NCBI GenBank assembly: GCA_029227035.1
Contig: JAQXZD010000113.1
Coordinates: 1 to 36,066, forward strand
DNA from: Lachnospiraceae bacterium
Lineage (GTDB): Bacteria; Bacillota; Clostridia; Lachnospirales; Lachnospiraceae
DNA: 36,066 nucleotides
Direction of reading: 5' to 3'
A program made the position numbers and the translations under genes. The notes beneath the pieces were generated by a model. That model ran no database searches. It was not told where the DNA came from and worked only from the letters and a program-made list of their open reading frames with translations. Below, piece by piece: positions 2,772 through 13,125 of this stretch; within the stretch, counting starts at the first letter, position 1, and each line of letters opens with the position of its first letter.

Positions 2772-3359
2772 ATGGACATACGTGATATTCGAAAGAAACT
2801 GAAAAAGGAACTGGATAAGGACCGGTATGAGCATTCCAAAGGGGTTATGTACACGGCAGGCTGCATGGCCATGGCATTTGCCTATGATTATGAAAAGGCA
2901 ATGCTTGCCGGAATTCTGCACGATTGTGCAAAATGTCTTTCCCCGGCAGAAAAGGTTGCCCTGTGCAAAAAGAAGCATCTGGAGATTTCCCAGGTGGAAC
3001 TGGATAATCCGGGACTTTTGCATGCCAAAGCCGGAATGGTTCTGGCAGAGGAAAAGTACGGCGTCAAAGATCCGGATATTCTGCATGCCATCATGGTACA
3101 CACGACCGGTGAGCCGAATATGAACACTCTGGATAAGATTATCTATGTGGCGGATTATATAGAGCCCCAGAGATGTGATGCCCCGCATCTGGATTTGATA
3201 CGGAGACTTGCATTCTCGGATTTAAATGAGTGCGTTGCGGAGATATTGTATGACACCCTGAATTATCTCAAAGGGCGAAAGGGCAGTATTGATTCTTCGA
3301 CACAATTGACCTATGAATTTTACAAACAATATGGAAAGGAGCGGCCATGGAAACATTAG
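2772..3359 (+). CDS. yqeK: HD-domain bis(5'-nucleosyl)-tetraphosphatase YqeK
   Basis: The product is a 195-residue HD-superfamily hydrolase of the YqeK family, whose characterised members split diadenosine tetraphosphate symmetrically into ADP. Metal-binding candidates are H21 (in YEHSKG), the H50-D51 pair (ILHDCAK), and the downstream HTTGEPNM and VADYIEPQR segments typical of the family. The ATG at 2772 is preceded by AGAGGCG. The 3' end overlaps the rsfS start by 13 bases, pointing to translational coupling. No transmembrane segment is seen. Confidence 0.94.
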   Translation: MDIRDIRKKLKKELDKDRYEHSKGVMYTAGCMAMAFAYDYEKAMLAGILHDCAKCLSPAEKVALCKKKHLEISQVELDNPGLLHAKAGMVLAEEKYGVKDPDILHAIMVHTTGEPNMNTLDKIIYVADYIEPQRCDAPHLDLIRRLAFSDLNECVAEILYDTLNYLKGRKGSIDSSTQLTYEFYKQYGKERPWKH

Positions 3360-3688
3360 ATATGGTGAAAGCTGCAGTAGAAGCTCTGAAGGATAAAAAG
3401 GCGGAGGATATTACAGTCATTGATATCGCAGAGGTTTCTTCCATCGCAGATTATTTTATTATTGCAAACGGCAGCAATCAGAATCAGTTGTCTGCAATGC
3501 AGGATGCCGTGGATGAGGCATTGTATAAAGCAGGTCTGCATGCAAAGCAGATAGAAGGAAATAACAAATCCACATGGATTCTGATGGATTATCAGGATAT
3601 CATTGTGCATCTGTTCTCCAAAGAGGATCGGCTGTTTTATGATCTGGAGCGTATCTGGAGAGACGGAAAAATTGTAGAGTTGGATTAA
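3347..3688 (+). CDS. rsfS: Ribosomal silencing factor RsfS
   Basis: This 113-residue RsfS (RsfA/Iojap family) protein binds L14 and blocks joining of the 50S and 30S subunits when nutrients are scarce. The diagnostic segments are the IDIAEVSSIADYFIIANGSN core, the EG-x-x-STWILMDYQDIIVHLF block and the terminal DLERIWRDGK. ATG 3347 has the Shine-Dalgarno AAAGGAG and lies inside the end of yqeK. It is the last gene of the plus-strand operon; the palindrome at 3696-3867 follows directly. Confidence 0.96.
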   Translation: METLDMVKAAVEALKDKKAEDITVIDIAEVSSIADYFIIANGSNQNQLSAMQDAVDEALYKAGLHAKQIEGNNKSTWILMDYQDIIVHLFSKEDRLFYDLERIWRDGKIVELD

Positions 3689-3695
3689 AAATGCC

Positions 3696-3867
3696 TTTTT
3701 ACAAAAGTGTACCAAAATGAATTTGCATATTCTATTGCAGACACGCTTCCGCTCGGATCGCAACGTAGTGGTACTAAATTCGTTAAAAAACTCATTAAGT
3801 ACCGACGTTGCTTTACGGTCTGCAATTAGAATAGCAAAATTCATTTTTAGAAACACAACGGTAAAAA
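3696..3867. repeat. Long imperfect palindrome between convergent rsfS and lexA
   Basis: This gene-free stretch folds on itself over about 172 bases. The outermost arms are TTTTTAC (3696-3702) and GTAAAAA (3861-3867), then GTGT (3707-3710) with ACAC (3853-3856). The main arms are 3714-3742 and 3818-3847, nearly perfect complements of about 29 bases with small bulges. Inner arms GCAACG/CGTTGC and GGTACT/AGTACC lie within 3760-3775 and 3798-3811. T-runs lie outside the stem on both strands, so it could act as a bidirectional terminator for the two convergent genes. Its size and architecture also suit a MITE or REP-type element. No terminal target-site duplication was recognised. Confidence 0.7.
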
Positions 3868-3887
3868 TACTTCGTAAAAAATCTGTT

Positions 3888-4505
3888 TTACCGGAAAAAG
3901 CGGAATACTCCAAATACCTTTCCGAGGATCTTACAATCCGGTACAATGATTGGATCCATATTGTCATTCTCAGGCTGAAGCCGGATATGTCCGTCTTCTT
4001 TGTAAAATGTCTTAACCGTTGCGGAATCGTCTACCAGTGCCACAACCATTTCACCGTTGCGGGCGGATTCGCATTTCTCCACGATGACATTATCCCCGTC
4101 AAAAATTCCGGCATTAATCATGCTTTCTCCCTTTACCTTTAACATAAAGGACTCTGCGTTTGGCATAAATTCGGCCGGAATCGGAAAATAGGAATCAATA
4201 TTTTCAACGGCAAGAATCGGCTGTCCGGCGGCAACCTGTCCAACCATCGGGACATTTACAATCTCCCGGCGTGTCAGATTAAAGCTGTCATCCACAATCT
4301 CGATTGCGCGAGGCTTGGTAGGATCCCGGCGGATATATCCGTTCTTCTCAAGGGTTTCCAGATGGGAGTGAACACTTGAGGTGGACTTTAAGTGAACTGC
4401 TTCACAGATATCGCGAACCGTAGGCGGATATCCTTTGTTGAGGATTTCCTTTTTGATATATTCTAAAATTTCTCTTTGCTTATCCGTAATCTTTCCATAT
4501 GCCAT
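3888..4505 (-). CDS. lexA: SOS repressor LexA
   Basis: The product is a 205-residue LexA. Residues 1-65 form the winged-helix DNA-binding domain ([32 protein letters not shown]). The autocleavage site is Ala93-Gly94 in QVAAGQP. The S24-type catalytic dyad is Ser128 (GESMINAG) and Lys165 (SATVKTF). The start is placed at ATG 4505, the [10 protein letters not shown] start usual for the family, because AGGAGG lies 9 bases upstream of it. The longer in-frame ATG at 4535 would add ten residues with no good ribosome site. LexA represses DNA-damage genes until RecA filaments trigger self-cleavage. Two SOS-like boxes lie upstream of its own promoter, so it is probably autoregulated. Confidence 0.97.
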
Positions 4506-4539
4506 ATATGAAATACCTCCTGTATGTTTAGTCACTCAA

Positions 4540-4593
4540 AGTTTAACATACTTCCACCGAAAAAGCAAACGTATATTCGCGAAAATCTGTTCG
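4540..4593 (-). promoter_or_regulatory. lexA promoter with two tandem SOS boxes
   Basis: Read on the minus strand, TTGCTT (4568-4563), a 17-base spacer and TAAACT (4545-4540) form a plausible sigma-A promoter 34 bases before the lexA start. Immediately upstream are two adjacent 14-mers resembling the Gram-positive SOS consensus CGAACNNNNGTTYG: CGAACAGATTTTCG (4593-4580, one mismatch) and CGAATATACGTTTG (4579-4566, one mismatch, overlapping the -35). The tandem arrangement fits LexA autoregulation. Box identity is by eye. Confidence 0.78.
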
Positions 4594-4636
4594 CATTTCC
4601 TGTATGATATGCGCAGAAAGTTTCGAAAAAAGCAGT

Positions 4637-4675
4637 AATCGTTTGCTTGATTTATGGTTTGCAAACGATTATACT
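4637..4675 (+). promoter_or_regulatory. Promoter with overlapping inverted-repeat operator for the diguanylate cyclase gene
   Basis: TTGATT (4647-4652), a 17-base spacer and TATACT (4670-4675) make a good sigma-A promoter. It is overlapped by a perfect 10-bp inverted repeat, AATCGTTTGC (4637-4646) and GCAAACGATT (4661-4670), with 14 bases between the arms. The left arm abuts the -35 and the right arm covers the spacer up to the -10, a layout expected of a repressor operator. The binding protein is unknown; the sequence does not fit the SOS consensus. Confidence 0.65.
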
Positions 4676-4715
4676 GTATATAGGATTGTGGGTTGAATTC
4701 TTTGGAGGAAGATTG

Positions 4716-6323
4716 ATGACCATAAATATCTCAGATAAGAAAATTAAAAACCTGTTTTACATATTTCTGGTGTTTACACTGGCTCTGACTCTCGTTGCGT
4801 TCTGGATGGGAGGAAGTAAAGAAAACGTGAATACAACCTGTGAAATCTGCAAGCCGACTACCATGCAAAAACTGGCAGACGGCGTGGATGAGTTCACCTT
4901 TGTTCCGAAAAAATATCCGATGGAGCTTAATACCATTGCGTTTTTTACCAGCCATCAGTTTGTCGAGATATATGAAGGCAAAAAGCTTATTTATTCCTTT
5001 GATACGGATGCCGGAATACTGGGACATACCACGGGAACGGCATGGCATTTTATACCTGTCGGGGACGGAGTTGAGGAGATAACGGTCCGGCTGACGCCTG
5101 CGTATGAGAGCGGGGAGTATCAGAAATGTACATTTTACTGCGGCAGTGAAATGGATATTTTTATTTATCTGTTTCGAAGAGCATTGCCATCATTTCTGGC
5201 TAGTGTGATTATTCTGATTCTCGGAATTGCACTGATTGTTCTCTCGAGGATTGTTGGAAAATGCGGCTTTACCGGGCAAAGCTTTTTATATTTGGGAATC
5301 TTTTCCACTCTGTTTGGGATTTGGTCGGCAAACGAGACGGATATTGTCACTCTGTTATGCAAAAACAGGGTTGGTTCGTATTTCCTTGCTTATGTGGCGC
5401 TGATGCTGATGGTGATTCCGTTTATTTTCTTTGTGCGGGAATTTTTCCGGGTAGGCGAGAATAAGATATGGAAGTTTTTTGCGGTGTCCAATATTCTGGA
5501 AATGATGACGGTGCTTGCACTTCAGTTTTTTGGAATCCGGGACCTGCGGGAGACGTTGTTTCTGACGCATATTTTCCTTGCTATAGGCATCGGTTATCTG
5601 ATCGGCTGCGTGTTGTATAAGATAATCAGAAACAAAGCGGATAAACGTGTAAGAGCCACAATATTCAGCGGTGTTTTGATTGTTGCGGCAGTGGTGATTG
5701 ATATCTATACCTATTATTACCGAATCGGAGATGCAGATTTGTTTGGACGGTTCGTATTCCTTTTGTTCATTGTCACAGTGTCCTTTGAAACCATATCAGA
5801 GACTCTTATCGTGATTGAAAAAGGAAAGAAGGCTGCAGAATATCAGAAGCTTGCAGATACGGATGCTTTGACAGGGCTGAAAAGCCGCAGTTCCTATGAG
5901 CGGGATGTGCAGCATCAGGCTTCCCACGACACGATGATTATTTCTTTTGATTTGAATAATCTGAAAAAATGCAACGACCGTTACGGGCATAAGATGGGAG
6001 ATGAGTACATTGTCAGCTCTTCCAGGATCATTAAAAAAGCCTTCAGCAGATACGGAAAAGTCTACCGCATCGGAGGAGATGAATTTGTCTGCATTGTTCC
6101 GCATTCCGGGAAGTGTCCCATTGATAAATGCCTGAAGCAGATGCAGGAAGAAGTTACGAAATACAATAGTGCAGGAACGCGATACTATGGATTTGTCATG
6201 CAGATTGCATGCGGTTATGCCGTGTATAATCCGCTGACGGATGAGGATCTGGAAGCAACGAGAAATCGTTCGGATTTTATGATGTACCAGAATAAATCGG
6301 CACTGAAAGAGAATAAAGAATAA
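4716..6323 (+). CDS. Membrane diguanylate cyclase (7TM-like sensor plus GGDEF)
   Basis: This 535-residue membrane protein probably makes cyclic di-GMP. An N-terminal membrane anchor (about 11-30) is followed by an extracytoplasmic domain (about 31-150). About seven hydrophobic segments follow between 155 and 375, resembling the 7TMR-DISM arrangement. The C-terminal GGDEF domain starts near TDALTGLKSR and has the active-site sequence GGDEF intact at 453-457 (YRIGGDEFVCIVP). The RxxD inhibitory I-site expected just upstream is absent (SRYG at that place), so simple product inhibition is not predicted. The start is placed at ATG 4716 because GGAGGAA lies 5 bases before it; an upstream in-frame ATG at 4647 lies within the promoter. 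It is a single gene between lexA and the BIG2 gene. The ligand sensed is unknown. Confidence 0.9.
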   Translation: MTINISDKKIKNLFYIFLVFTLALTLVAFWMGGSKENVNTTCEICKPTTMQKLADGVDEFTFVPKKYPMELNTIAFFTSHQFVEIYEGKKLIYSFDTDAGILGHTTGTAWHFIPVGDGVEEITVRLTPAYESGEYQKCTFYCGSEMDIFIYLFRRALPSFLASVIILILGIALIVLSRIVGKCGFTGQSFLYLGIFSTLFGIWSANETDIVTLLCKNRVGSYFLAYVALMLMVIPFIFFVREFFRVGENKIWKFFAVSNILEMMTVLALQFFGIRDLRETLFLTHIFLAIGIGYLIGCVLYKIIRNKADKRVRATIFSGVLIVAAVVIDIYTYYYRIGDADLFGRFVFLLFIVTVSFETISETLIVIEKGKKAAEYQKLADTDALTGLKSRSSYERDVQHQASHDTMIISFDLNNLKKCNDRYGHKMGDEYIVSSSRIIKKAFSRYGKVYRIGGDEFVCIVPHSGKCPIDKCLKQMQEEVTKYNSAGTRYYGFVMQIACGYAVYNPLTDEDLEATRNRSDFMMYQNKSALKENKE

Positions 6324-6385
6324 ATTAGCTAATTTAAAAAATGAGCTTTTATGCATCGATAAAGTAAAAATTGAATAAAAATAGC

Positions 6386-6404
6386 GCAAAAATTTTTGCT
6401 TTTT
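6386..6404 (+). terminator. Weak AT-rich hairpin after the GGDEF gene
   Basis: The palindrome GCAAAAATTTTTGC (6386-6399) is followed by TTTTT. It lies 63 bases after the diguanylate cyclase stop and just before the next promoter. The stem is AT-rich, so termination would be weak. Confidence 0.4.
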
Positions 6405-6411
6405 GTGCAAC

Positions 6412-6440
6412 TTGACTACTGCAGAGAAAAGTGTTAGAAT
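6412..6440 (+). promoter_or_regulatory. Sigma-A promoter for the BIG2 protein gene
   Basis: TTGACT (6412-6417), a 17-base spacer and TAGAAT (6435-6440) match the vegetative consensus well. The predicted transcript would have a leader of about 60 bases with the Shine-Dalgarno GAAAGGAG (about 6492-6499) before ATG 6509. No riboswitch-like structure was recognised in the leader. Confidence 0.75.
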
Positions 6441-6508
6441 TTACTTAACCATTATTTAGCAGGATGGGGGAAGCAATACAAACAGTATTTTGAAAGGAGA
6501 ATATCGTT

Positions 6509-7492
6509 ATGAAGAAATTTGCAAAAAATCTGCTGGCAGCCGCATGTGCTGTTGCACTGTCGGTAACGACGCTTGTACCGGCTACACCGGTTCTTGCTGC
6601 AAGCAAGAACAAAGTTGTTGAGATTCCGGTAAACTTTACCAACAGCAGTTGGGAGGATAATTGGGACACGACTTCATTCAGTGATATCTGTTTATGGTCA
6701 ACGGGAGAGCAGTCAGCTTATTCGGATTGTTACACAGTCAGCTTCAAGCTTTATGTCCCGACTTCTTTTATGAAAGAAGGTTCTGCTCTCAATATCGGTG
6801 GCAGTCTGAATTTTGATGATACCACAGAAGAGGAGTGGAAGTGGGCAGGCTTCACGGAGTTACCGAGTGCAGAATTGCATGAAGACGGTTCTGTAACAAA
6901 ATGGAGCGATGAAGAGCAAAAGGATGTTCCGATTGATTATGCAACGGTCAAGAAGACCGGAGACTTCTATGTTATTTCCTATTCGGGAAAGACAGGTACG
7001 GTTCACGCTGAGGATGCACAGGCAGATCCGACCAAAGCAGAGAAGGTGGCAGTCACTCCTTCTGTTTGCATCAAAGGCATTTTCATCACGGCAAAGAACA
7101 GTGCCATCTATTTGGATGATCTCAAGATTACCAAAGCGGACGGAACCGTTGTCCGTGACCAGAACTTTACCTCTGACAAGAAGGTAGAGGGTGAGACAAG
7201 AGTTGCACCGAAGATGGGCGAAAGTGATGGCAAGGCAATCAAGCTTGCTACCATTACCGACAATAAGGTATTAACCGTTAAATCGACCAAGCTTTCCGTT
7301 AAAGTGAAAAAGACGGCAAAGATTTCTGCAACCGCTACACCGGCAACCAAGATTACCTACACTTCTTCCAACAAGAAGGTCGCTACTGTTAATTCAAAGG
7401 GCGTTGTCACAGGTAAGAAGGCCGGAAAGGCAGTGATTTCCGTTAAGGCAAACGGCAAGACCGTAAAGGTTACCGTTACCGTCAAAAAGTAA
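6509..7492 (+). CDS. Secreted protein with C-terminal BIG2 (Ig-like) domain
   Basis: The product is 327 residues. Residues 1-30 form a Sec signal peptide (KK start, hydrophobic core, TPVLA-A cut). Residues about 35-215 look like a beta-rich domain with many aromatic and acidic residues (NFTNSSWEDNWDTT, VSFKLYVP, KGIFITAKNSAIYLDDLKI), similar in feel to carbohydrate-binding beta-sandwich modules, though no specific family was recognised. Residues about 252-327 form a BIG2 domain with the usual hallmarks ATPATKITYTSSNKKVATV, GVVTGKKAGKAVI and VTVTVKK. No LPXTG, catalytic motif or membrane anchor is visible, so it is probably released or held by wall polymers. The C-terminal third is Lys-rich. 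It is transcribed alone: a strong promoter precedes it and a strong terminator follows. Confidence 0.85.
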   Translation: MKKFAKNLLAAACAVALSVTTLVPATPVLAASKNKVVEIPVNFTNSSWEDNWDTTSFSDICLWSTGEQSAYSDCYTVSFKLYVPTSFMKEGSALNIGGSLNFDDTTEEEWKWAGFTELPSAELHEDGSVTKWSDEEQKDVPIDYATVKKTGDFYVISYSGKTGTVHAEDAQADPTKAEKVAVTPSVCIKGIFITAKNSAIYLDDLKITKADGTVVRDQNFTSDKKVEGETRVAPKMGESDGKAIKLATITDNKVLTVKSTKLSVKVKKTAKISATATPATKITYTSSNKKVATVNSKGVVTGKKAGKAVISVKANGKTVKVTVTVKK

Positions 7493-7514
7493 AGAAATGT
7501 AAAATAAGAGGATG

Positions 7515-7549
7515 TGTTCCGGAAGTTCGCTTTCGGAACATATTTTTTA
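7515..7549 (+). terminator. Strong intrinsic terminator with UUCG loop
   Basis: TGTTCCGGAAG (7515-7525) pairs with CTTTCGGAACA (7530-7540) as an 11-bp stem with one G-U pair, closed by a UUCG tetraloop (7526-7529). TATTTTTTA follows. It ends the BIG2 gene transcript. Confidence 0.93.
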
Positions 7550-7586
7550 TTTGATAGGAAATTCTCTTCGAGCTTTGTTGTAAAAT

Positions 7587-7663
7587 CGAAAATTTGTTCG
7601 AATTATGTGTTGACAAACATTTGTTCTTGTATTATATTATATATACAAACAAACGAACGTTCG
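7587..7663 (+). promoter_or_regulatory. Promoter with three SOS boxes for the YneA-like gene
   Basis: TTGACA (7610-7615), a 17-base spacer and TATATT (7633-7638) form a near-consensus promoter. Three 14-mers fit the Gram-positive SOS consensus CGAACNNNNGTTYG when read on the appropriate strand. CGAAAATTTGTTCG lies at 7587-7600 (one mismatch, same form as a lexA box). CAAACATTTGTTCT at 7614-7627 overlaps the -35 end and spacer; its reverse strand is AGAACAAATGTTTG. CAAACGAACGTTCG at 7650-7663 lies just after the start point; its reverse strand CGAACGTTCGTTTG is a full match. One box upstream, one on the core promoter and one downstream implies tight LexA repression. Confidence 0.83.
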
Positions 7664-7698
7664 ATGATACAGAAGTTAAAGGTTTCGGAGGGATAATT

Positions 7699-8076
7699 AT
7701 GAGAAGAGTATATAATGAAAAAATATCTGCCCGTGCAAATGAGAGTCTTGCAAGGCGCGCTCGTACAGTCCGCATAGAGAAGAGTATTATCGCAATTGTC
7801 AGTATTATCATTATAGCTGCCATCATACTGATTGGAAGCAGTATCATTACGTTTGCCAGTGCCTGCGGTCAGAAATCTTATTCAAAAGAATATACCAGCA
7901 TACGGATTGAGCCGGGAGATACGCTTTGGGATATTTCCGATCATTATCTGGTGGACGGAGCCATGGACAAGGAAGACTATATTGATGAAATATGCAGAGT
8001 GAACAATATTTCCAGGGAAGATACACTTCACAGCGGAGAATATCTTGTGGTAGCCTGCTATTCCGAAATCGAATAG
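7699..8076 (+). CDS. yneA: YneA-like SOS division inhibitor (TM + LysM)
   Basis: This is a 125-residue protein with a basic N-terminus, one membrane segment (about 29-53) and an extracytoplasmic LysM domain (about 66-121, EPGDTLWDIS to GEYLVVAC). This is the domain plan of Bacillus YneA, which halts division during the SOS response and usually lies beside lexA. Here lexA is 3.2 kb away, separated by two genes, but three SOS boxes surround this promoter. The start is at ATG 7699 with the Shine-Dalgarno GGAGGG 8 bases upstream; the upstream in-frame ATG at 7594 lies within the SOS-box region ahead of the promoter. LysM binds peptidoglycan. Function is inferred from layout and regulation; the gene symbol is by analogy, not by sequence identity. 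Confidence 0.78.
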   Translation: MRRVYNEKISARANESLARRARTVRIEKSIIAIVSIIIIAAIILIGSSIITFASACGQKSYSKEYTSIRIEPGDTLWDISDHYLVDGAMDKEDYIDEICRVNNISREDTLHSGEYLVVACYSEIE

Positions 8077-8113
8077 AACAGTCGATTCTCTCTTTATATC
8101 ATAGACCGATAAG

Positions 8114-8142
8114 TTGAAAAAAATCGCTCAATACATTATAAT
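8114..8142 (+). promoter_or_regulatory. Sigma-A promoter for plsC
   Basis: TTGAAA (8114-8119), a 17-base spacer and a perfect TATAAT (8137-8142) lie 28 bases before plsC. No clear terminator was found between the LysM gene stop and this promoter, so some read-through of SOS transcripts into plsC is possible. Confidence 0.85.
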
Positions 8143-8169
8143 GTTATAGTATAAAAAGGGAGAAAGATT

Positions 8170-8886
8170 ATGCTGAAATTTATTTATGTGATACTTATGA
8201 ATTTGCACAAAGCACCCTATATGATTCCGAAGATGCGGATACGTGCAAATCATCCGGAGCGATATACGGAAGAACAGCGATATGCTCTGGTGCATCATGT
8301 GATTTATCTGATGAATAAGACCGGGAAGATTACAACCAAAGCCTATGGTTTGGAAAATCTTCCGGAAGAGGGTGGATATATGATGTATCCGAATCATCAG
8401 GGAAAATATGATGTACTGGGAATTATGTATACGCATAAGAAGCCGTGTTCTTTTATTATGGATGCAAAAAAGTCCCATACCGTTTTAGTGCGTGAGTTCT
8501 GTGATTTGGTTCAGGCGTATCGGTTGGAAAAAGACAATCCAAGACAGGGTATTACCATCATTAACAAGGTTGCAAAAGAAGTTGCCGCAGGCAAGAGATA
8601 CATTCTTTTTCCGGAAGGCGGGTATAAGTTCAATAATAAGAACAGTGTGTGTGATTTTAAGGCTGGAAGCTTTAAGATAGCACTCAAATCAAAGGTTCCG
8701 ATTGTACCGGTTGCTTTAATTGACTCCTATAAAGTTTTTAACAGCTTTCATTTAGGACCAATCACAACCTACGTTTATTATTTAAAACCAATTACATACG
8801 ACGAATACAAGAATATGAAAACGCAGGAGATTGCAGCTCTTGTGAAAGAGAGAATCTCTGAGAAAATTCAGGAGGTACAGTCCTAG
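8170..8886 (+). CDS. plsC: 1-acyl-sn-glycerol-3-phosphate acyltransferase family protein
   Basis: The 238-residue protein is a PlsC-family acyltransferase that adds the second fatty acid in phospholipid synthesis at the membrane. Motif I HQGKYD (H76, D81) is the catalytic HX4D in an NHQ context. Motif III FPEG is at 147-150, and VPIVPVALI near 180 is the usual motif IV region. The N-terminus is only weakly hydrophobic. ATG 8170 has AGGGAGAAAG upstream. The gene converges on the recombinase gene; the two stop codons share the palindrome CTAG at 8883-8886. Exact substrate preference cannot be judged. Confidence 0.9.
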   Translation: MLKFIYVILMNLHKAPYMIPKMRIRANHPERYTEEQRYALVHHVIYLMNKTGKITTKAYGLENLPEEGGYMMYPNHQGKYDVLGIMYTHKKPCSFIMDAKKSHTVLVREFCDLVQAYRLEKDNPRQGITIINKVAKEVAAGKRYILFPEGGYKFNNKNSVCDFKAGSFKIALKSKVPIVPVALIDSYKVFNSFHLGPITTYVYYLKPITYDEYKNMKTQEIAALVKERISEKIQEVQS

Positions 8887-9938
8887 TCATCCTCGCGTAA
8901 ATGAACATATTTTGCAGCCTGACGCCGCCTGTCATCTTCCAGGGCGGCGTAGTGCTTTTTAGTGGTATTTACGTCCTTATGACCGAGCACGTCTGCTACC
9001 AGATAGATATCCCCTGTTTCACGGTAAAGAGCAGTACCGTAAGTGCTACGGAGCTTATGAGGGGTAATTTTTTTCAACCCGGTTATCAGTTTTGAGTATT
9101 TTTTGACAAGATTTTCTACTGCACGCACGCTGATTCTTTTGTTCTGTATGGACAAAAATAAAGCTTTTTCATGTCCGGCAGACGGAGTCATTTCTTTTCG
9201 TTCCAACAGATAATCACAGAGTGCATCCCGCACTTCCGTTCCAAAATATACAATAACTTCAGCACCACCTTTACGGTGGATTTTGATACCGTTATTGTTT
9301 AAATCAACATCATCAAGATCCAGACCTACACACTCGGACACGCGGATTCCGGTTCCCAGCATAAGGGTTAAGAGAGCCAGGTCGCGAACTTTGGTTTTGG
9401 CATGATATGCCTGCTGTTTTTTGGTCAGATCCTCGCCGGATTCCACTTCATCCAACAATCGGGCAACCTCATCCACATCCAGACGAATGATATTTTTATC
9501 ATGGATTTTTGGCATACTTACCTTAACTGCAGGATTGGTTTCAATGAATTCATTCTTATACAGATAGTTATAAAAAGAACGGAGAGAGGCCAGTTTCCGT
9601 TTTATGCCGCGCTCTTCATTGGTATGGGCATTTCCGTCTTTTTCATATACTTTAAGATTATAGAGATATTCTTCAATATCCATAGGTTTTAACTGATCCA
9701 AGATACTGATGGGAATATCTTTTATTTCCATTTTCTTGCAAATAGGATTGTTTTCATGAAGATAGTCAAAGAAACAGGCAAGGTCATATGCGTAGGCGAG
9801 TCTGGTTCTTGACTGTGTTTCGTGTTCTATTCCGATAAAGTACTGTTTACAGTAGGGTGGGAGAGCTGCCAACTGTTTTCGCAGCTTTAATTCATTATCA
9901 ATATCAACTTGTTCATAATATGCTTTAGGTGTCTCCAT
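8883..9938 (-). CDS. xerS: XerS-like tyrosine recombinase
   Basis: The product is a 351-residue phage-integrase-family recombinase. The N-terminal SAM-like core-binding domain is about 20-135. The catalytic domain has R199 (GTGIRVSE), K223 (HRKGG), H294 and R297 (HKLRS), H320 (LGHKD) and the nucleophile Y330 (KKHYAAL), so all six expected residues are present. The length above 340 and the N-terminal LPPYCKQY segment resemble XerS, the single dimer-resolution recombinase of streptococci, more than XerC/XerD (about 300 residues). Its start overlaps the end of ttcA by 14 bases, with the Shine-Dalgarno AAGGATGG. No dif-like site was recognised in the window. The neighbours are housekeeping genes, which argues for a chromosomal Xer role, not an integrase. 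XerS versus another Xer subtype is not certain. Confidence 0.85.
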   Translation of the reverse strand: METPKAYYEQVDIDNELKLRKQLAALPPYCKQYFIGIEHETQSRTRLAYAYDLACFFDYLHENNPICKKMEIKDIPISILDQLKPMDIEEYLYNLKVYEKDGNAHTNEERGIKRKLASLRSFYNYLYKNEFIETNPAVKVSMPKIHDKNIIRLDVDEVARLLDEVESGEDLTKKQQAYHAKTKVRDLALLTLMLGTGIRVSECVGLDLDDVDLNNNGIKIHRKGGAEVIVYFGTEVRDALCDYLLERKEMTPSAGHEKALFLSIQNKRISVRAVENLVKKYSKLITGLKKITPHKLRSTYGTALYRETGDIYLVADVLGHKDVNTTKKHYAALEDDRRRQAAKYVHLREDD

Positions 9939-10653
9939 AACAATTCCATCCTTCTATATTTCCGTTTATAATTGCATGAAATAATCTCTTTTTTACACCG
10001 GGATTTTCACGGTTTAACTGCCTGACAATATCTTTGACATATTCACGGTGTGTCATATGATCCGCAGGGCAGGGGTTCTTTATGACAGGAAGTTCATATT
10101 TATTCTGAAAGCCGATCACATCAGCTTCCGGAACATACATGAGAGGTCTTATTACGGTAAGCTTGCTCCTTGTAAGCTGTGTAACCGGAGGAAACGTATA
10201 AAATCTTCCTTCGTAAATTAAAGACAACAGCATGGTCTCTATCAGATCATCCATGTGATGCGCATAGGCAACTTTATTATATCCAAGTTTGGCGATATAA
10301 TCATTGAGAGCTCCTTTGCGCATTTTGGCGCATAGAGAGCATGGAGATTTTTCATTACGTTCTTCAAATACAATCTGACCGATATCGGTTTTTACAACAT
10401 GATATTCTACCTGAAGCTGTTCACAAAGTTCTTGAATTTTATCTACAGCAAAGGGAGTAAAGCCTAAGTCTACGGTGACTGCACAAAGCGAGTACCGGAC
10501 AGGATAAAACTTCTGCAGCCCTGCAAGGGCATACAGGAGAGAGAGAGAGTCCTTCCCGCCGGATATCCCAACGGCGATTCTGTCGTTTTCTTCAATCATA
10601 TGATAGTCTTCGATTGCCTGTCTGACATAACTGTATAATTTTTGCAGTTTCAT
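9925..10653 (-). CDS. ttcA: TtcA-like tRNA thiolation PP-loop ATPase
   Basis: The protein has 242 residues. An N-type ATP pyrophosphatase PP-loop SGGKDS sits at 31-36. A CxxC pair is at 105-108 (CSLCAKMR), with a further Cys at 195 (NPCPADHM). The three cysteines fit an Fe-S cluster as in the TtcA/TtuA family, which puts sulfur on tRNA bases. TtcA itself makes 2-thiocytidine-32; Firmicutes members may have another target base. The Shine-Dalgarno GTGAGGA precedes ATG 10653. It is the first gene of a two-gene operon with the recombinase. The promoter is at 10698-10726. Confidence 0.85.
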   Translation of the reverse strand: MKLQKLYSYVRQAIEDYHMIEENDRIAVGISGGKDSLSLLYALAGLQKFYPVRYSLCAVTVDLGFTPFAVDKIQELCEQLQVEYHVVKTDIGQIVFEERNEKSPCSLCAKMRKGALNDYIAKLGYNKVAYAHHMDDLIETMLLSLIYEGRFYTFPPVTQLTRSKLTVIRPLMYVPEADVIGFQNKYELPVIKNPCPADHMTHREYVKDIVRQLNRENPGVKKRLFHAIINGNIEGWNCYGDT

Positions 10654-10697
10654 GCTCTGTCCTCACTTTTGGCGGGTATGCTTTGCGGTTCCTTTTG

Positions 10698-10726
10698 ATT
10701 ATACACTACTTGCGTGGGATATGTAA
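10698..10726 (-). promoter_or_regulatory. Promoter for ttcA-xerS
   Basis: On the minus strand, TTACAT (10726-10721), a 17-base spacer and TATAAT (10703-10698) lie 45 bases upstream of ttcA. It is divergent from the dtd promoter about 80 bases away. Confidence 0.75.
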
Positions 10727-10783
10727 CTGTTTCATGGATTTTTTCATCGGAACAGGGAAGGTACTGAACATTTTGAGTACTTG

Positions 10784-10820
10784 TGCTATAATGTGAGCAT
10801 AACCCGAATTATTATTCGGG
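10784..10820 (+). promoter_or_regulatory. Extended -10 promoter for dtd plus leader hairpin
   Basis: TGCTATAAT (10784-10792) is an extended -10 with no convincing -35. The predicted start point is followed at once by the hairpin CCCGAAT (10803-10809)/ATTCGGG (10814-10820), four-base loop, at the 5' end of the dtd leader. Such a 5'-terminal hairpin could stabilise the mRNA. The left part of it (ACCCGAATTATTATTC, 10802-10817) recurs exactly at 12904-12919. Confidence 0.6.
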
Positions 10821-10850
10821 CATAATTTGCAGAGAAAGGGTTTTATTTTT

Positions 10851-11300
10851 ATGAAGTTTGTTATTCAGCGAGTATCACAGGCAAAATGTGAAGTAAATGG
10901 CAGCATAACCGGAGAGATTGGACAGGGATTTTGTGTTTTGATTGGCATATCACAGACCGATACCTGTGAAGTTGCAGATAAGATGATAAAAAAGCTGTTG
11001 GGAATGCGTATTTTCAGTGATGAGGAGGGAAAAATCAATTTGTCAATCCATGATGTTCAGGGGGAATTGTTATTGATTTCACAATTTACTTTATATGCAA
11101 ATTGCCGTAAAGGAAATCGTCCGTCCTTTGTGGATGCCGGCAATCCGGATATGGCAAATGAATTATATGAATATATCATATCCGAATGTCGTAAAGTAAT
11201 TCCCAATGTGCAGACCGGAATCTTTGGAGCAGACATGAAGGTTTCTTTGACAAATGACGGTCCGTTCACCATTGTATTGGATTCAGAAGATCTTAAGTAA
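10851..11300 (+). CDS. dtd: D-aminoacyl-tRNA deacylase
   Basis: The product is a 149-residue DTD that hydrolyses D-aminoacyl-tRNAs (and Gly-tRNA-Ala) to keep D-amino acids out of protein. The signature elements are SQFT at 77-80 and the Gly-cisPro motif GPFT at 137-140, with the usual start [15 protein letters not shown]. The start is set at ATG 10851 for that reason, with GAGAAAGGG 10 bases upstream; the earlier ATG at 10827 would add eight non-conserved residues. It is apparently monocistronic. The TAA stop at 11298-11300 lies on the first bases of a 65-bp direct repeat. No terminator follows within the next 40 bases except the repeat hairpin at 11349. Confidence 0.96.
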
Positions 11301-11363
11301 ACGTCCTGTGGAGCTGGAAATTAGGGTGAAAAGAGGAACAAGTAACTATTCGCAAAACTCTTG
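11299..11363 (+). repeat. 65-bp direct repeat, copy 1
   Basis: This copy starts AAACGTCCTGTGGAGC on the dtd stop codon and ends ACTATTCGCAAAACTCTTG. Copy 2 is at 12042-12107. The ends match exactly (about 16 and 23 bases); the middle is imperfect, with small substitutions and one base of length difference. The two copies bracket the structured RNA candidate. Confidence 0.9.
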
Positions 11364-11378
11364 ACCGAGTTTTGCGAA
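11349..11378. repeat. Palindromic repeat, TTCGCAAAACTC hairpin
   Basis: The arms TTCGCAAAACTC (11349-11360) and GAGTTTTGCGAA (11367-11378) are perfect 12-bp complements with a 6-base loop. Related hairpins lie at 11453-11485 and 12088-12121. It could terminate dtd transcription, but no T-tract follows. Confidence 0.85.
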
Positions 11379-11623
11379 AGCAAAGCAAAGCGGAGCGGTA
11401 GTTGATAACGTGCGACATGGAATGTGCGAAAACGGAGTGCGTTTGCCTATCCACTATTTGCAAAATGAGAAGTTTTGCGCATAGTTGCGTATAGGGATAC
11501 ATGTAGGTAAAATGCTTTGAAAACGTCGGTATTCGGGGATAAAACGTGGAACGTCTGCGGGTGTGGAGCGGGTACAAAGCGGCGGCAAGCGCACGCGCGC
11601 CCTTTGCCCGCGGAAAAAAGGTC
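11379..11623. other. Gene-free stretch between dtd and the RNA candidate
   Basis: No credible gene is seen on either strand. Long open frames on the minus strand are Cys/His/Pro-rich, lack ribosome sites and match no family I know. The stretch is locally G-rich, with purine runs (GCAAAGCAAAGCGGAGCGG) and a GC-rich block (11580-11612) that can fold. Apart from the palindromic copy at 11453-11485, I see nothing specific. Confidence 0.6.
11453..11485. repeat. Palindromic repeat, diverged copy
   Basis: ACTATTTGCAAAA (11453-11465) and TTTTGCGCATAGT (11473-11485) pair at 11 of 13 positions around a 7-base loop. The sequence is clearly related to the hairpin at 11349 (ACTATTCGCAAAAC). Confidence 0.7.
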
Positions 11624-11652
11624 TTGCAAGTGCAGAGGTGGAATGTTATACT
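11624..11652 (+). promoter_or_regulatory. Promoter of the structured RNA candidate
   Basis: TTGCAA (11624-11629), a 17-base spacer and TATACT (11647-11652) fit a sigma-A promoter. No open reading frame with a ribosome site begins downstream of it before the terminator at 12009-12036. Confidence 0.65.
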
Positions 11653-11657
11653 GTGTG

Positions 11658-12036
11658 GCATGAAAAACCGTTCTGAGGGGGTTTTGGAAAGCCTGCGCTG
11701 AGTTGTTGTGTAAAGCAAGCCAGATGCGGGAGCGCAAGCGGGTCGCATGAGTGCAAAGCACGGAAGGGCAACCATGAGCTTGCCAACCATAACGCTCACC
11801 ATGTAGCGGCGGCGCTATTAGAACGTGTGGCAAATTTAGACAGACTCGGAACGGAAGTTCCGGCTCTCGGTGTAAAGGGTTGTCGGAACGTAAAGACTTG
11901 GTCCCCCCTACTTGACTATGGGGACAAAAGTTACTCATTTTTGAAAAAGCTACTCCCGTCAGCATACGGACATAATGCGTATGCAGTCAGTCCACTAACG
12001 GACAAAAAGCCCGTGCGTAACAGTGCGGGCATATTT
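11658..12036 (+). ncRNA. Candidate structured non-coding RNA, about 375 nt, family unknown
   Basis: The predicted transcript runs from about 11658 to the terminator at 12036 and is packed with hairpins. AAAACC/GGTTTT is at 11664-11685. ATGCG/CGCAT is at 11724-11748, with an inner GC(GCAA)GC GNRA loop. GTGC/GCAC is at 11751-11761. GGCAA/TTGCC is at 11767-11784. TAGCG/CGCTA is at 11804-11817. CGGAAC/GTTCCG is at 11847-11862, with a GGAA (GNRA) loop. GTCCCC/GGGGAC is at 11901-11925. GCATACG/CGTATGC is at 11962-11984. GTCC/GGAC is at 11990-12003. The segment is richer in GC than its surroundings and lacks a plausible protein. I checked by eye for RNase P, tmRNA, T-box and group II intron domain V hallmarks and did not find them. 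It lies between the 65-bp direct repeats, so it may be an acquired unit. Expression and family are unproven. Confidence 0.55.
12009..12036 (+). terminator. Terminator of the structured RNA candidate
   Basis: GCCCGTGC (12009-12016) pairs with GTGCGGGC (12023-12030), including two G-U pairs, around a 6-base loop. ATATTTTA follows. It lies just before direct-repeat copy 2. Confidence 0.75.
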
Positions 12037-12041
12037 TATGC

Positions 12042-12107
12042 AAACGTCCTGTGGAGCCTGTAATCTTGGGTGCAAAGAGAAGTGAGTAACTATTCGCAAA
12101 ACTCTTG
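12042..12107 (+). repeat. 65-bp direct repeat, copy 2
   Basis: This is the partner of 11299-11363: it starts AAACGTCCTGTGGAGC and ends with the same TAACTATTCGCAAAACTCTTG block. It begins six bases after the RNA terminator. Confidence 0.9.
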
Positions 12108-12121
12108 TTTAACGAATAGTT
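12088..12121. repeat. Palindromic repeat, third copy
   Basis: AACTATTCG (12088-12096) pairs with CGAATAGTT (12113-12121) around a 16-base loop. The left half is identical to the hairpin at 11349, but the inner part of the right arm is replaced. Confidence 0.75.
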
Positions 12122-12176
12122 CTATGCATACGGCAAGACTATCTCCGCGTTTTGTACTGAATGGCTGTTTTACAAA

Positions 12177-12211
12177 GAAATCCCGCACACATTAAATATG
12201 TACGGGATTTA
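12177..12211 (-). terminator. Terminator of the cytidylate-kinase-like gene
   Basis: On the minus strand, AAATCCCGTACAT (12210-12198) pairs with a near-complementary arm ending GCGGGATTT (12186-12178). It lies 11 bases after the stop at 12221. The T-tract is short. Confidence 0.75.
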
Positions 12212-12220
12212 TCGTATGTA

Positions 12221-12847
12221 TCAGTGGTTCATTTTCTCACGATAAGCAAGTATAATATTTACGCATTCCTCTGGAGAGATTTTTGTAGTGTTTAAGGTAA
12301 GGTCATAGCTGCGTGCGTCACCCCATTTTTTACTGGTATAGTAATTATAGTAGCTGGAACGCTGCTTATCCTTCTTCTGGATCATATCTTTTGCTTTATT
12401 CTCGGTAATATTTTCCCGCTTGCTGATTCGTTTAATGCGAACATCCATGTCTGCATGTACAAAGATATTCAGACAATCAGGATTTGAAGCAAGCGCGTAA
12501 TCTGCGCATCTTCCAACGATAACGCAGGATTCTTCCTGTTCTGCAATCTTTTTGATGGTGTCAAACTGTGCCAGGAATACCTTCTGGTTCAGGGGCATAT
12601 CCAGAAAAGGCGCTGAAAAATAGTTGCCGCCGGAATAGGTATCCATGACAAGAGAATAGAGAAAACTGTTGGTTGGTTTCTCATCCTGATTCTCAAAGAT
12701 TTCCTCGCAAAATCCTGATTCTTTTGCGGCCTGTGTCAATAATTCTTTGTCATACAATTTGATTCCAAGACGTTCTGCGAGCTTTTTTCCTACGGTATAA
12801 CCGCCGCTTCCAAGCTCTCTTCCGATTGTATAAATCTGATTACCCAT
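12221..12847 (-). CDS. Cytidylate kinase-like family protein
   Basis: This 208-residue protein has the N-terminal nucleotide loop TIGRELGSGGYTVGKKLA (7-24), followed by LYDKELL and a central VIVGRCADYAL segment. These are the marks of the cytidylate-kinase-like family (Pfam Cytidylate_kin2 type), which is common in Clostridia and Bacteroidetes. Classic Cmk has a GPxGxGKS loop; here it is the GRxxGSGG form. Substrate and role are not established for this branch. It has its own Shine-Dalgarno (GGGAGGAA) and terminator. It is flanked by inverted copies of GAGTAACTATTC (12084-12095 and 12888-12899), so it sits as an island between repeats. Confidence 0.8.
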   Translation of the reverse strand: MGNQIYTIGRELGSGGYTVGKKLAERLGIKLYDKELLTQAAKESGFCEEIFENQDEKPTNSFLYSLVMDTYSGGNYFSAPFLDMPLNQKVFLAQFDTIKKIAEQEESCVIVGRCADYALASNPDCLNIFVHADMDVRIKRISKRENITENKAKDMIQKKDKQRSSYYNYYTSKKWGDARSYDLTLNTTKISPEECVNIILAYREKMNH

Positions 12848-13125
12848 ATCTGGTTCCTCCCATGTTTATCTTATTCTAAGGGGTTCTGAATAGTTACTCT
12901 TTTACCCGAATTATTATTCACAGTCACCCACAGGCCACAGACCAGTTGCGCAATGCGCAACTGTCGCTGCTTTGCAGCTTTTGTCTGAGGCTATGTGGGG
13001 AGGGTGAATAAATTCCCCCCTCAAGTGAAATCATAAATTCGGCTTACAAGCAAGCTTGACGCTCGAATTACCGATTTCACTTGACCACTGTGAATAATTC
13101 AAGTTAATTATATTATACCCAATTG
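12848..13125. other. Repeat-rich intergenic region between rluD and the kinase-like gene
   Basis: This 278-base gene-free stretch holds the 12-mer GAATAGTTACTC (12888-12899, an inverted copy of 12084-12095) and the nested palindromic element 12904-13100. No promoter for the kinase-like gene was convincing. The last bases (13101-13125) are AT-rich and follow the rluD stop. Confidence 0.7.
12904..13100. repeat. Nested palindromic element with two competing outer arms
   Basis: TTATTCACAGT (12914-12924) is complementary to ACTGTGAATAA (13087-13097), defining the outer limits. Inside, the first module pairs TTATTCAC (12914-12921) with GTGAATAA (13004-13011) and GCCACAGAC (12934-12942) with GTCTGAGGC (12983-12991, one mismatch). 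It encloses two hairpins, CAGTTGCGC/GCGCAACTG (12943-12963) and GCTGC/GCAGC (12966-12978). The second module is a perfect 12-bp stem TCAAGTGAAATC (13021-13032)/GATTTCACTTGA (13073-13084) with inner AATTCG/CGAATT. One TTATTCAC arm can pair with either of two partners. The layout fits a MITE or REP-type mobile repeat, or a structured RNA switch. The module could also terminate rluD. Confidence 0.75.

What the first reader, a model, noticed from the sequence alone, without database searches (positions are those of the whole stretch)
11624..12036. Candidate structured non-coding RNA with its own promoter and terminator
A GC-richer, protein-free segment has a TTGCAA-N17-TATACT promoter, about nine local hairpins (two capped by GNRA loops) and an intrinsic terminator at 12009-12036. 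The predicted RNA is about 375 nt. I could not match it by eye to RNase P, tmRNA, a T-box, 6S or a group II intron. It lies in an intergenic slot between direct repeats, as an imported RNA unit would. It is the best candidate here for something undescribed.
Basis: partly seen in the sequence, partly recalled or inferred. Interest (0 to 1): 0.78.

Follow-up and report, generated by a model that had tools for sequence, protein, structure and literature searches.

The report
Gene-less phage satellite at dif
The supposed non-coding RNA gene is most likely part of a tiny protein-free DNA parasite of filamentous phages, carrying a phage replication origin and a foldable insertion site and sitting in the chromosome's dimer-resolution site.

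Summary
The hairpins are real, but the stand-alone ncRNA reading is not supported. 11624-12036 lies inside a 744-bp insertion (11344-12087) in the chromosome's dif site, between dtd and a cytidylate kinase-like gene and near a XerS-like gene. In fetched congeneric regions, 43 of 47 with dtd have a dif-like site within 2.5 kb downstream; GC skew changes sign there. The insertion has no recognisable gene. It carries three cis-acting parts, in the order seen in a dif-integrated gut inovirus: (1) a CTXphi-type double attP (attP1 11344-11380, attP2 11453-11488), whose inner arm dinucleotides covary in nine elements (18 of 18 Watson-Crick, five pair types); (2) a rolling-circle origin (11905-11937), 31 of 33 bases identical to the block before the HUH Rep gene of an IMG/VR inovirus; (3) the right dif. 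Three more gene-less insertions (about 0.8, 1.05 and 1.3 kb) and several inovirus-type prophages occupy the same kind of site. Best reading: a naturally integrated 'miniphage', a satellite replicated in trans by a helper inovirus and integrated by the host XerS as folded ssDNA. Origin, attP and dif rest on sequence evidence; present mobility is inferred. A dead deletion relic is the main rival.

The parts
8883..9938 (-). XerS-like tyrosine recombinase gene, the likely integrase in trans
   Evidence: Best NCBIfam model XerS (NF003462), E 9e-61, 205.5 bits, below its curated cut-off of 267
10851..11300 (+). dtd, D-aminoacyl-tRNA deacylase; chromosomal gene left of dif
   Evidence: NCBIfam TIGR00256 E 1.4e-55; flanks dif in congeneric loci; start taken at the ATG read
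11300..11343 (+). Flank that resembles the element's right end (12043-12087)
   Evidence: 85% identity over about 65 bp including the dif left arm; origin unexplained
11344..12087 (+). 744-bp gene-less element inserted at dif
   Evidence: Bounded by two dif-like copies; no Pfam/NCBIfam family; no match of 445 inovirus-locus ORFs to it at E<0.05 with a fixed database size; a default run gave one 28-aa match at 0.020, read as chance
11344..11380 (+). attP1/attL: dif left arm, enlarged centre (12 nt against 6 in dif by the same measure), phage right arm
   Evidence: Pattern, alignment, covariation
11397..11404 (+). GGTAGTTG, conserved after attP1; can pair with the left arm of attP2
   Evidence: GGTAGTT kept in 5 of 6 rows, GTTAGTT in the sixth; pairing seen in folds
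11453..11488 (+). attP2, second dif-like site whose arms pair with those of attP1
11624..11652 (+).
   Evidence: 9 of 12 matches; 1 found against 1.0 expected by chance
11901..11937 (+). Rolling-circle (plus-strand) origin: TACTTGACTATGG (11909-11921) in and beside the loop of hairpin GTCCCC...GGGGAC
   Evidence: 11905-11937: 31 of 33 identical to the block upstream of HUH Rep in inovirus L273; motif in 0 of 100 shuffles; hairpin
12009..12030 (+). GC-rich hairpin, terminator-like; role unknown
   Evidence: 2 sites found against 1.3 expected
12088..12121 (+). Intact dif (right end of the element)
   Evidence: Conserved near-palindrome AACTATTCGCAAAAC-TCTT-GTTTAACGAATAGTT after dtd in the genus; GC skew switch
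12221..12847 (-). Cytidylate kinase-like gene; chromosomal neighbour right of dif
   Evidence: Best NCBIfam cyt_kin_arch E 2e-17, 63.6 bits, below its cut-off of 102.1

Best explanation
11344-12087 is a gene-less inovirus-type satellite, an integrated 'miniphage'. A helper filamentous phage in the same cell would nick the origin hairpin at 11901-11925 with its HUH (G2P-type) Rep, replicate the 744-nt circle by rolling circle and pack it with its own coat and Zot-like proteins. In a new cell the entering ssDNA would fold so that attP1 pairs with attP2, making a double-stranded dif-like site with an enlarged bulged centre. The host XerS-like recombinase would join it to chromosomal dif, leaving an intact dif on the right. 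This is the CTXphi scheme with a single recombinase. Shown by sequence: insertion at dif, double attP with covariation, origin, absence of recognisable genes. Inferred: nicking, packaging, XerS action, present mobility.
For: dif: of 50 congeneric regions fetched because they had matched the dtd end or a dif arm, 47 hold dtd and 43 of these have a dif-like site within 2.5 kb downstream, 37 within 250 bp; one base-shuffled control gave 0 of 47. GC skew turns negative at about 12 kb; a XerS-like gene is near. Same site used by phages: inovirus-type prophages lie at dif beside dtd or xerS (L222; L130; L071; L257 and L258, judged mainly from their ORFs by eye). Double attP: R1/L2 dinucleotides 18 of 18 Watson-Crick with five pair types in nine elements, reached by 16 of 362,880 permutations; L1/R2 15 of 18 plus 2 wobble, 720 of 362,880. 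In 4 of 9 the attP1:attP2 hairpin is the free DNA minimum, and in a fifth (L257) it is so but for one mismatch. Origin: TACTTGACWATRG occurs once in the window, 0 in 100 shuffles; in the first 264 loci it occurs only in copies of this element, of the G426 element, and in five Rep-encoding inoviruses, 37-103 nt before the first ATG of Rep; 31 of 33 identity to L273. At E<0.05 only attP, origin and dif blocks are shared between the four short elements and 13 loci with inovirus-type genes.
Against: The free DNA fold of this element prefers an attP1 self-hairpin by 3.6 kcal/mol over the attP1:attP2 fold; G426, G442 and L130 also prefer other folds. No G2P-type Rep, hence no such helper, in the host assembly, which is 85.6% complete. 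The element is single-copy in its genome and no second copy was found elsewhere, so there is no direct sign of movement. L257 has one mismatch in the outer pairing. The stretch 11490-11900 has no relative. The flank repeat 11300-11343 is unexplained. The origin motif is missing from 3 of 8 distinct Rep loci that were not found through the motif (L134, L263, L264) and from the G442 and G301 elements.
Confidence: 0.7

Rival explanations
1. Dead relic: an inovirus prophage integrated at dif lost all its genes by deletion, leaving attP, origin and attR. The remains do not move.
For: No G2P-type helper Rep in the assembly; single copy; the G442 and G301 elements lack the origin motif; the flank duplicate could be an older insertion scar.
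Against: Gene-less insertions in four species keep att-type sites and an intact dif while their inner parts are unrelated: outside att and dif blocks the four share one 20-nt match, E 0.009, beside the short origin motif of the window and G426. No protein remnant at E<0.05 with a fixed database size except one 16-aa match at 0.049 (G426), while the same search finds 23 hits on the L222 prophage from other loci; a default run, of which three lines were printed, listed matches of 27-29 aa at 0.011-0.029, read as chance. Arm pairing and the origin hairpin are intact.
Confidence: 0.24
2. Free-standing structured non-coding RNA gene, perhaps inserted at dif by chance.
For: Strong fold (z -3.4); promoter-like and terminator-like sites.
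Against: Promoter and terminator counts are at chance; no Rfam match; no RNA-like homologue; the segment holds a phage-type replication origin.
Confidence: 0.04
3. Non-phage rolling-circle element (cryptic plasmid or integrated element) that shares an HUH origin.
For: HUH origins occur in plasmids (recalled).
Against: No plasmid match at E 1e-5. The origin relatives with a G2P-type Rep that were examined for it have a Zot-like gene: L130 (the query itself), L149, L150, L202, L222 by tblastn; L273 by a Walker-A motif read by eye in its ORF. L292 was not examined for Zot.
Confidence: 0.02

Closest known systems
M13/f1 and Pf4 miniphages (gene-less filamentous phage cheaters; PMC7064744, passages read)
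   Same: Genome reduced to cis-acting parts; needs a full phage in trans
   Different: The passages describe miniphages arising in passaged cultures; this one sits in the chromosome at dif with an attP of its own, and is 744 bp against about 2.5 kb for Pf4
CTXphi-type IMEX (PMC4246890 and PMC5357621, passages read)
   Same: Two inverted dif-like attP sites, attP1 with an extended centre, about 90 bp apart, folding as ssDNA to recombine with dif
   Different: Single XerS-like recombinase instead of XerC/XerD; host of the Clostridia; no genes
TLCphi (PMC4246890, passages read) and RS1 (recalled), satellites of filamentous vibriophages
   Same: TLCphi: Xer-integrated and without morphogenesis and coat genes; RS1: helper-dependent (recalled)
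   Different: Those encode proteins (TLCphi: an autonomous replication module in the passage; RS1 genes recalled); here no recognisable protein
Begomovirus deltasatellites (PMC12193555, passages read)
   Same: About 0.7-kb protein-free circular ssDNA satellite that depends on the helper for replication and carries an origin stem-loop
   Different: Plant viruses; chromosomal integration is not part of their description in the passages; convergent, not homologous
Gut inoviruses of Enterocloster (PMC10061712, passages and abstract start)
   Same: Inoviruses of gut Clostridia, flanked by direct repeats
   Different: Full 6.5-16 kb phages; the term Xer does not occur in the main text held

Membership tests
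XerS/dif chromosome dimer-resolution site (12088-12121) | Near-palindromic site at the replication terminus, close to the recombinase gene | tested here: met
XerS/dif chromosome dimer-resolution site (12088-12121) | Recombinase reaches the curated XerS score | tested here: not met
   205.5 bits against a cut-off of 267; best model all the same: XerS-like, not a certified XerS
IMEX of CTXphi type | Inserted at dif, bounded by dif-like sites | tested here: met
IMEX of CTXphi type | attP1 with extended centre and inverted attP2 about 90 nt on, complementary arms | tested here: met
   Starts 104-121 nt apart and centres of 9-12 nt (6 in dif) in nine elements; covariation
IMEX of CTXphi type | Folded attP is the preferred single-strand structure | tested here: inconclusive
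   Free minimum in 4 of 9, nearly so in a fifth, but not in this element, where a self-hairpin is 3.6 kcal/mol better
IMEX of CTXphi type | Recombination of folded ssDNA attP with dif | not testable with these tools
   needs biochemistry
Inovirus (Inoviridae) | Zot/pI ATPase, coat and Rep genes | tested here: not met
   No such gene found in the element: not an inovirus itself
Inovirus satellite / miniphage | Helper's plus-strand origin present | tested here: met
   31 of 33 identity to the Rep-linked block of L273; that the block is the origin is inferred from its place and hairpin
Inovirus satellite / miniphage | Replication and packaging by a helper | not testable with these tools
   No resident G2P-type Rep in the 85.6% complete assembly
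Inovirus satellite / miniphage | Packaging signal | not tested
   No such signal of these phages was known to me; hairpins are candidates only
Structured ncRNA gene | Match to an Rfam family | tested here: not met
Structured ncRNA gene | Covarying homologues of 11624-12036 | tested here: inconclusive
   No homologues found to test

The most novel reading that the evidence does not exclude
Protein-free filamentous-phage satellites are a natural, recurrent class of mobile element in gut Lachnospiraceae: 0.7-1.3 kb single-stranded circles made only of an origin, a foldable double attP and structured DNA, which parasitise inoviruses and use the host's single Xer recombinase, the bacterial counterpart of plant-virus deltasatellites.
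Probability: 0.45. Interest if true: 0.82.

Novelty: new variant of a known kind. Interest (0 to 1): 0.67.

Why it matters
If mobile, this would be a very small integrating mobile element and would show that miniphage cheaters, described from passaged cultures (PMC7064744), settle as heritable residents of chromosomes. It would extend CTXphi-style ssDNA integration to a single-recombinase system in a major group of gut bacteria, supported here by base-pair covariation. It also gives a signature (double attP at dif plus the TACTTGACWATRG hairpin) for elements that gene-based phage finders would be expected to miss and that can pass for orphan structured RNAs.

Tried and rejected
Degraded protein gene: the 127-codon frame 11680-12060 (+) and two long minus-strand ORFs gave no Pfam or NCBIfam match and at most PHROG E 0.15. 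The frame has no relative in 396 other family genomes. My first thought that I remembered this peptide was a false recollection.

Known RNA: Rfam scans negative. Dispersed repeat of the host: single copy.

Exact attL pattern in IMG/VR: no match. A Zot query in IMG/VR: 3 candidate stretches, none confirmed. In genome contigs the attL pattern gave 28 stretches: I read nine by eye plus the dtd and xer hits in all 28 and kept L129, L130, L134 and L138. The window-type origin 15-mer gave 27 IMG/VR stretches, of which one, L273, holds a G2P-type Rep; the other 26 I treat as chance. The family-wide attP1 pattern matched 39 of 397 genomes, the host included. I kept G149, G369 and G235 because their matched text shows the GGTAGTT signature, fetched G301, G048 and G171 as well and did not examine the rest. 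G048 and G171 show no double attP. G301 has two dif sites with a second dif-like site about 260 nt from the first, so it is not in the nine-element covariation set. L071, whose second site is about 350 nt away, is not in the set either. The 74 IMG/VR stretches with a dif-like site were searched with five phage proteins and a Rep profile only.

Literature: nine searches, listings only except the papers named. They showed no gene-less integrated inovirus satellite and no inovirus integration through XerS. One search was swamped by 'difficile', one search returned one paper, and subscription papers are not covered.

Limits: the dinucleotides of L257-L259 were read by eye and typed in; one search finds both sites by regex in all nine. 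In one search the forced fold of L257 contains a non-standard pair and its energy is not used. The nine elements are related, so permutation counts are not probabilities. The 50 regions come from 49 of the 62 genomes and were chosen for matching dtd or dif arms, so 43 of 47 is not an unbiased rate.

Full report
Check of the observation. The stretch 11624-12036 is GC-richer than the window (0.51 against 0.44) and folds well as RNA (z -3.4; 0 of 100 shuffles as good). It has no Rfam match. The promoter and the terminator are consensus matches at the rate expected by chance. No protein family matches its ORFs at a meaningful level. It occurs once in its genome, has no plasmid or phage match at E 1e-5, and among 397 family genomes hits only itself and one 32-nt stretch.

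The turning point was the genus search. With 11200-12260 as query, 47 of 62 genomes of the genus, the host included, matched, but mostly at only two places: the end of dtd and a near-palindrome at 12088-12121. I fetched 50 regions from 49 of these genomes, chosen because they matched dtd or a dif arm. 47 hold dtd, and 43 of these have the site, consensus TTTATTCGCAAAAC-ACAA-GTTTAACGAATAGT, within 2.5 kb downstream, 37 of the 43 within 250 bp; one base-shuffled control gave 0 of 47. The four without a site are L071 (a prophage lies in between), L090 (the contig ends), L095 (Ns follow) and L109. A XerS-like recombinase gene lies 2 kb away in the window (best NCBIfam model XerS, below its cut-off), and a relative was found in 37 of the 50 regions. 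The GC skew changes from positive to negative at about 12 kb. The site is therefore most likely the chromosomal dif of a single-recombinase system; the review PMC5357621 (passages read) describes XerS with its dif beside the gene in streptococci.

In the window the dif is doubled: a left copy with a dif left arm but a different right arm (11344-11380) and an intact right copy (12088-12121), with 744 bp from one to the other.

Other genomes carry insertions at the same kind of site. G426 (L075) and G442 (L106) have gene-less insertions of about 0.8 and 1.05 kb sharing the left 75 and 147 nt with the window (79% and 69%). G301 (L260), of another genus, has a gene-less insertion of about 1.3 kb between two dif copies, 2 kb from a xerS-like gene. 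Their longest ORFs are 91, 83 and 79 codons. Inovirus-type prophages sit there too. L222 (IMG/VR) runs dtd, attP1, attP2, coat-like ORFs, Zot-like gene, origin block, HUH Rep, dif. L130 (Lachnospiraceae SIG310) starts beside xerS; its right end was not examined. G407 (L071; Rep_trans initiator E 1e-18, morphogenesis PHROG E 3e-7) lies between dtd and dif. G149 (L257; initiator related to that of L071, E 3e-6) and G369 (L258) were judged mainly from their ORFs by eye. The Reps of L130, L134 and L222 belong to PF23343, E 4e-12, 8e-12 and 3e-14, and to a PHROG of rolling-circle initiation.

Double attP. In the window and eight other elements a first dif-like site with an enlarged centre (9-12 nt, against 6 in dif by the same measure) is followed, with starts 104-121 nt apart, by a second dif-like site in which the left arm pairs with the right arm of the first and the right arm with the left arm of the first. 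The two variable positions inside the arms covary. For right arm 1 against left arm 2, all 18 of 18 positions are Watson-Crick with five pair types (TG/CA, AA/TT, AG/CT, CG/CG, CA/TG), reached by 16 of 362,880 permutations. For left arm 1 against right arm 2, 15 of 18 are Watson-Crick and 2 are wobble, with one mismatch in L257 (720 of 362,880). On the six elements found first, before the family scan, the figures were 12 of 12 (4 of 720) and 10 of 12 (48 of 720). In 4 of 9 (L134, L222, L258, L259) the attP1:attP2 hairpin is already the free DNA minimum, and in L257 it is so but for the mismatch. In the window, G426, G442 and L130 other folds are better by 3.6, 4.0, 3.2 and 1.6 kcal/mol; in the window and G442 this is a self-hairpin of attP1. 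This is the arrangement described for CTXphi: attP1 with a 12-bp centre, attP2 with 5-7 bp, 90 bp between, folding as ssDNA to recombine with dif (PMC4246890, passages read).

Origin. BLAST of the G426 element against inoviruses picked out a 39-nt block just before the Rep gene of L222; its core TACTTGACWATRG also stands in the window at 11909-11921. The motif occurs once in the 36-kb window and never in 100 shuffles. Among the first 264 loci fetched it occurs only in copies of this element, in copies of the G426 element, and in five Rep-bearing inoviruses. There it lies 37-103 nt before the first ATG of the Rep ORF (L130, L149, L150, L202, L222; positions). Of eight distinct Rep loci not found through the motif, 5 have it and 3 do not (L134, L263, L264). 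A scan of IMG/VR with the window-type 15-mer gave 27 stretches. One, L273, is a 5.6-kb contig with HUH Rep, a Zot-like gene split over its ends and a long coat-like ORF, the last two by eye. There the identity reaches beyond the search pattern: 31 of 33 bases of window 11905-11937, with a similar hairpin holding the motif. The order and orientation attP1, attP2, origin, dif of the window are those of L222, and, as far as examined, of L130. That the block is the nicking site is inferred from place, hairpin and conservation.

Little else is shared. A nucleotide comparison of the four short elements with 13 loci with inovirus-type genes returns, at E<0.05, only attP, origin and dif blocks. Compared with each other, the four share att and dif blocks and one further 20-nt match (E 0.009, window against G442); the origin motif is in the window and G426, not in G442 or G301. 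A protein search with 445 ORFs from those 13 loci finds no convincing remnant: one 16-aa match in G426 at E 0.049 with a fixed database size, and, in a default run of which only three lines were printed, matches of 27-29 aa at 0.011 (G301), 0.020 (window) and 0.029 (G442). The same search finds 23 hits on L222 from other loci. The elements thus look like cis-acting parts without genes.

Mechanism. The simplest account is a miniphage that has settled in the chromosome: replicated and packed by a helper inovirus, integrated by the host's Xer recombinase. Miniphages of M13 and Pf4, reduced to origin and packaging signal, are described from passaged cultures (PMC7064744, passages read). Plant-virus deltasatellites (about 0.7 kb, no protein, replicated by the helper; PMC12193555, passages read) are a convergent parallel. 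Against present mobility: no G2P-type Rep in the 85.6% complete host assembly and in only 2 of the 62 genomes searched, host included, and no second copy. A dead relic therefore remains possible, and I give it about one chance in four.

Known or new. Nine literature searches listed no gene-less integrated inovirus satellite and no inovirus integration through XerS; one of them was swamped by unrelated hits. The Enterocloster inovirus paper (PMC10061712, passages) reports direct-repeat flanks and its held main text lacks the term Xer; in the 2019 inovirus survey (PMC6813254, term search only) neither 'satellite' nor 'Xer' was found. Subscription papers were not covered. I file it as a new variant of known kinds (inovirus satellite / miniphage, CTXphi-type IMEX), not as a member of the inoviruses themselves, since none of their genes was found in it.

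Noticed in passing
window 12905-13105: Palindrome-rich block ending in inverted repeats (12913-12924 / 13087-13098) between the cytidylate kinase-like and RluD-like genes; 15 other places in this genome carry similar stretches of 71-214 bp (78-90% identity), so it looks like a MITE-like dispersed repeat.
   Followed up: partly
L071 (G407) 3405-11316: An inovirus-type prophage with a Rep_trans initiator at dif; an alpha-L-fucosidase gene lies between dtd and the prophage.
   Followed up: partly
L258 (G369) 3199-10947: Inovirus-type locus at dif whose putative initiator resembles a CRESS-type Rep by eye; not tested with family models.
   Followed up: no
L263 (G410 C10) and L264 (G407 C2): G2P-type Rep genes next to what looks by eye like a tRNA gene, suggesting inovirus-type elements at a second kind of integration site.
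   Followed up: no
L095 and L094 (G427): The assembly breaks at dif: a left site with an element-like right arm followed by Ns, and a right dif on another contig preceded by small ORFs; probably another dif-inserted element.
   Followed up: no
window 11300-11343 and 12043-12087: The flank left of the element resembles the element's own right end; G427 shows a similar duplication. Possibly the scar of an earlier insertion.
   Followed up: partly
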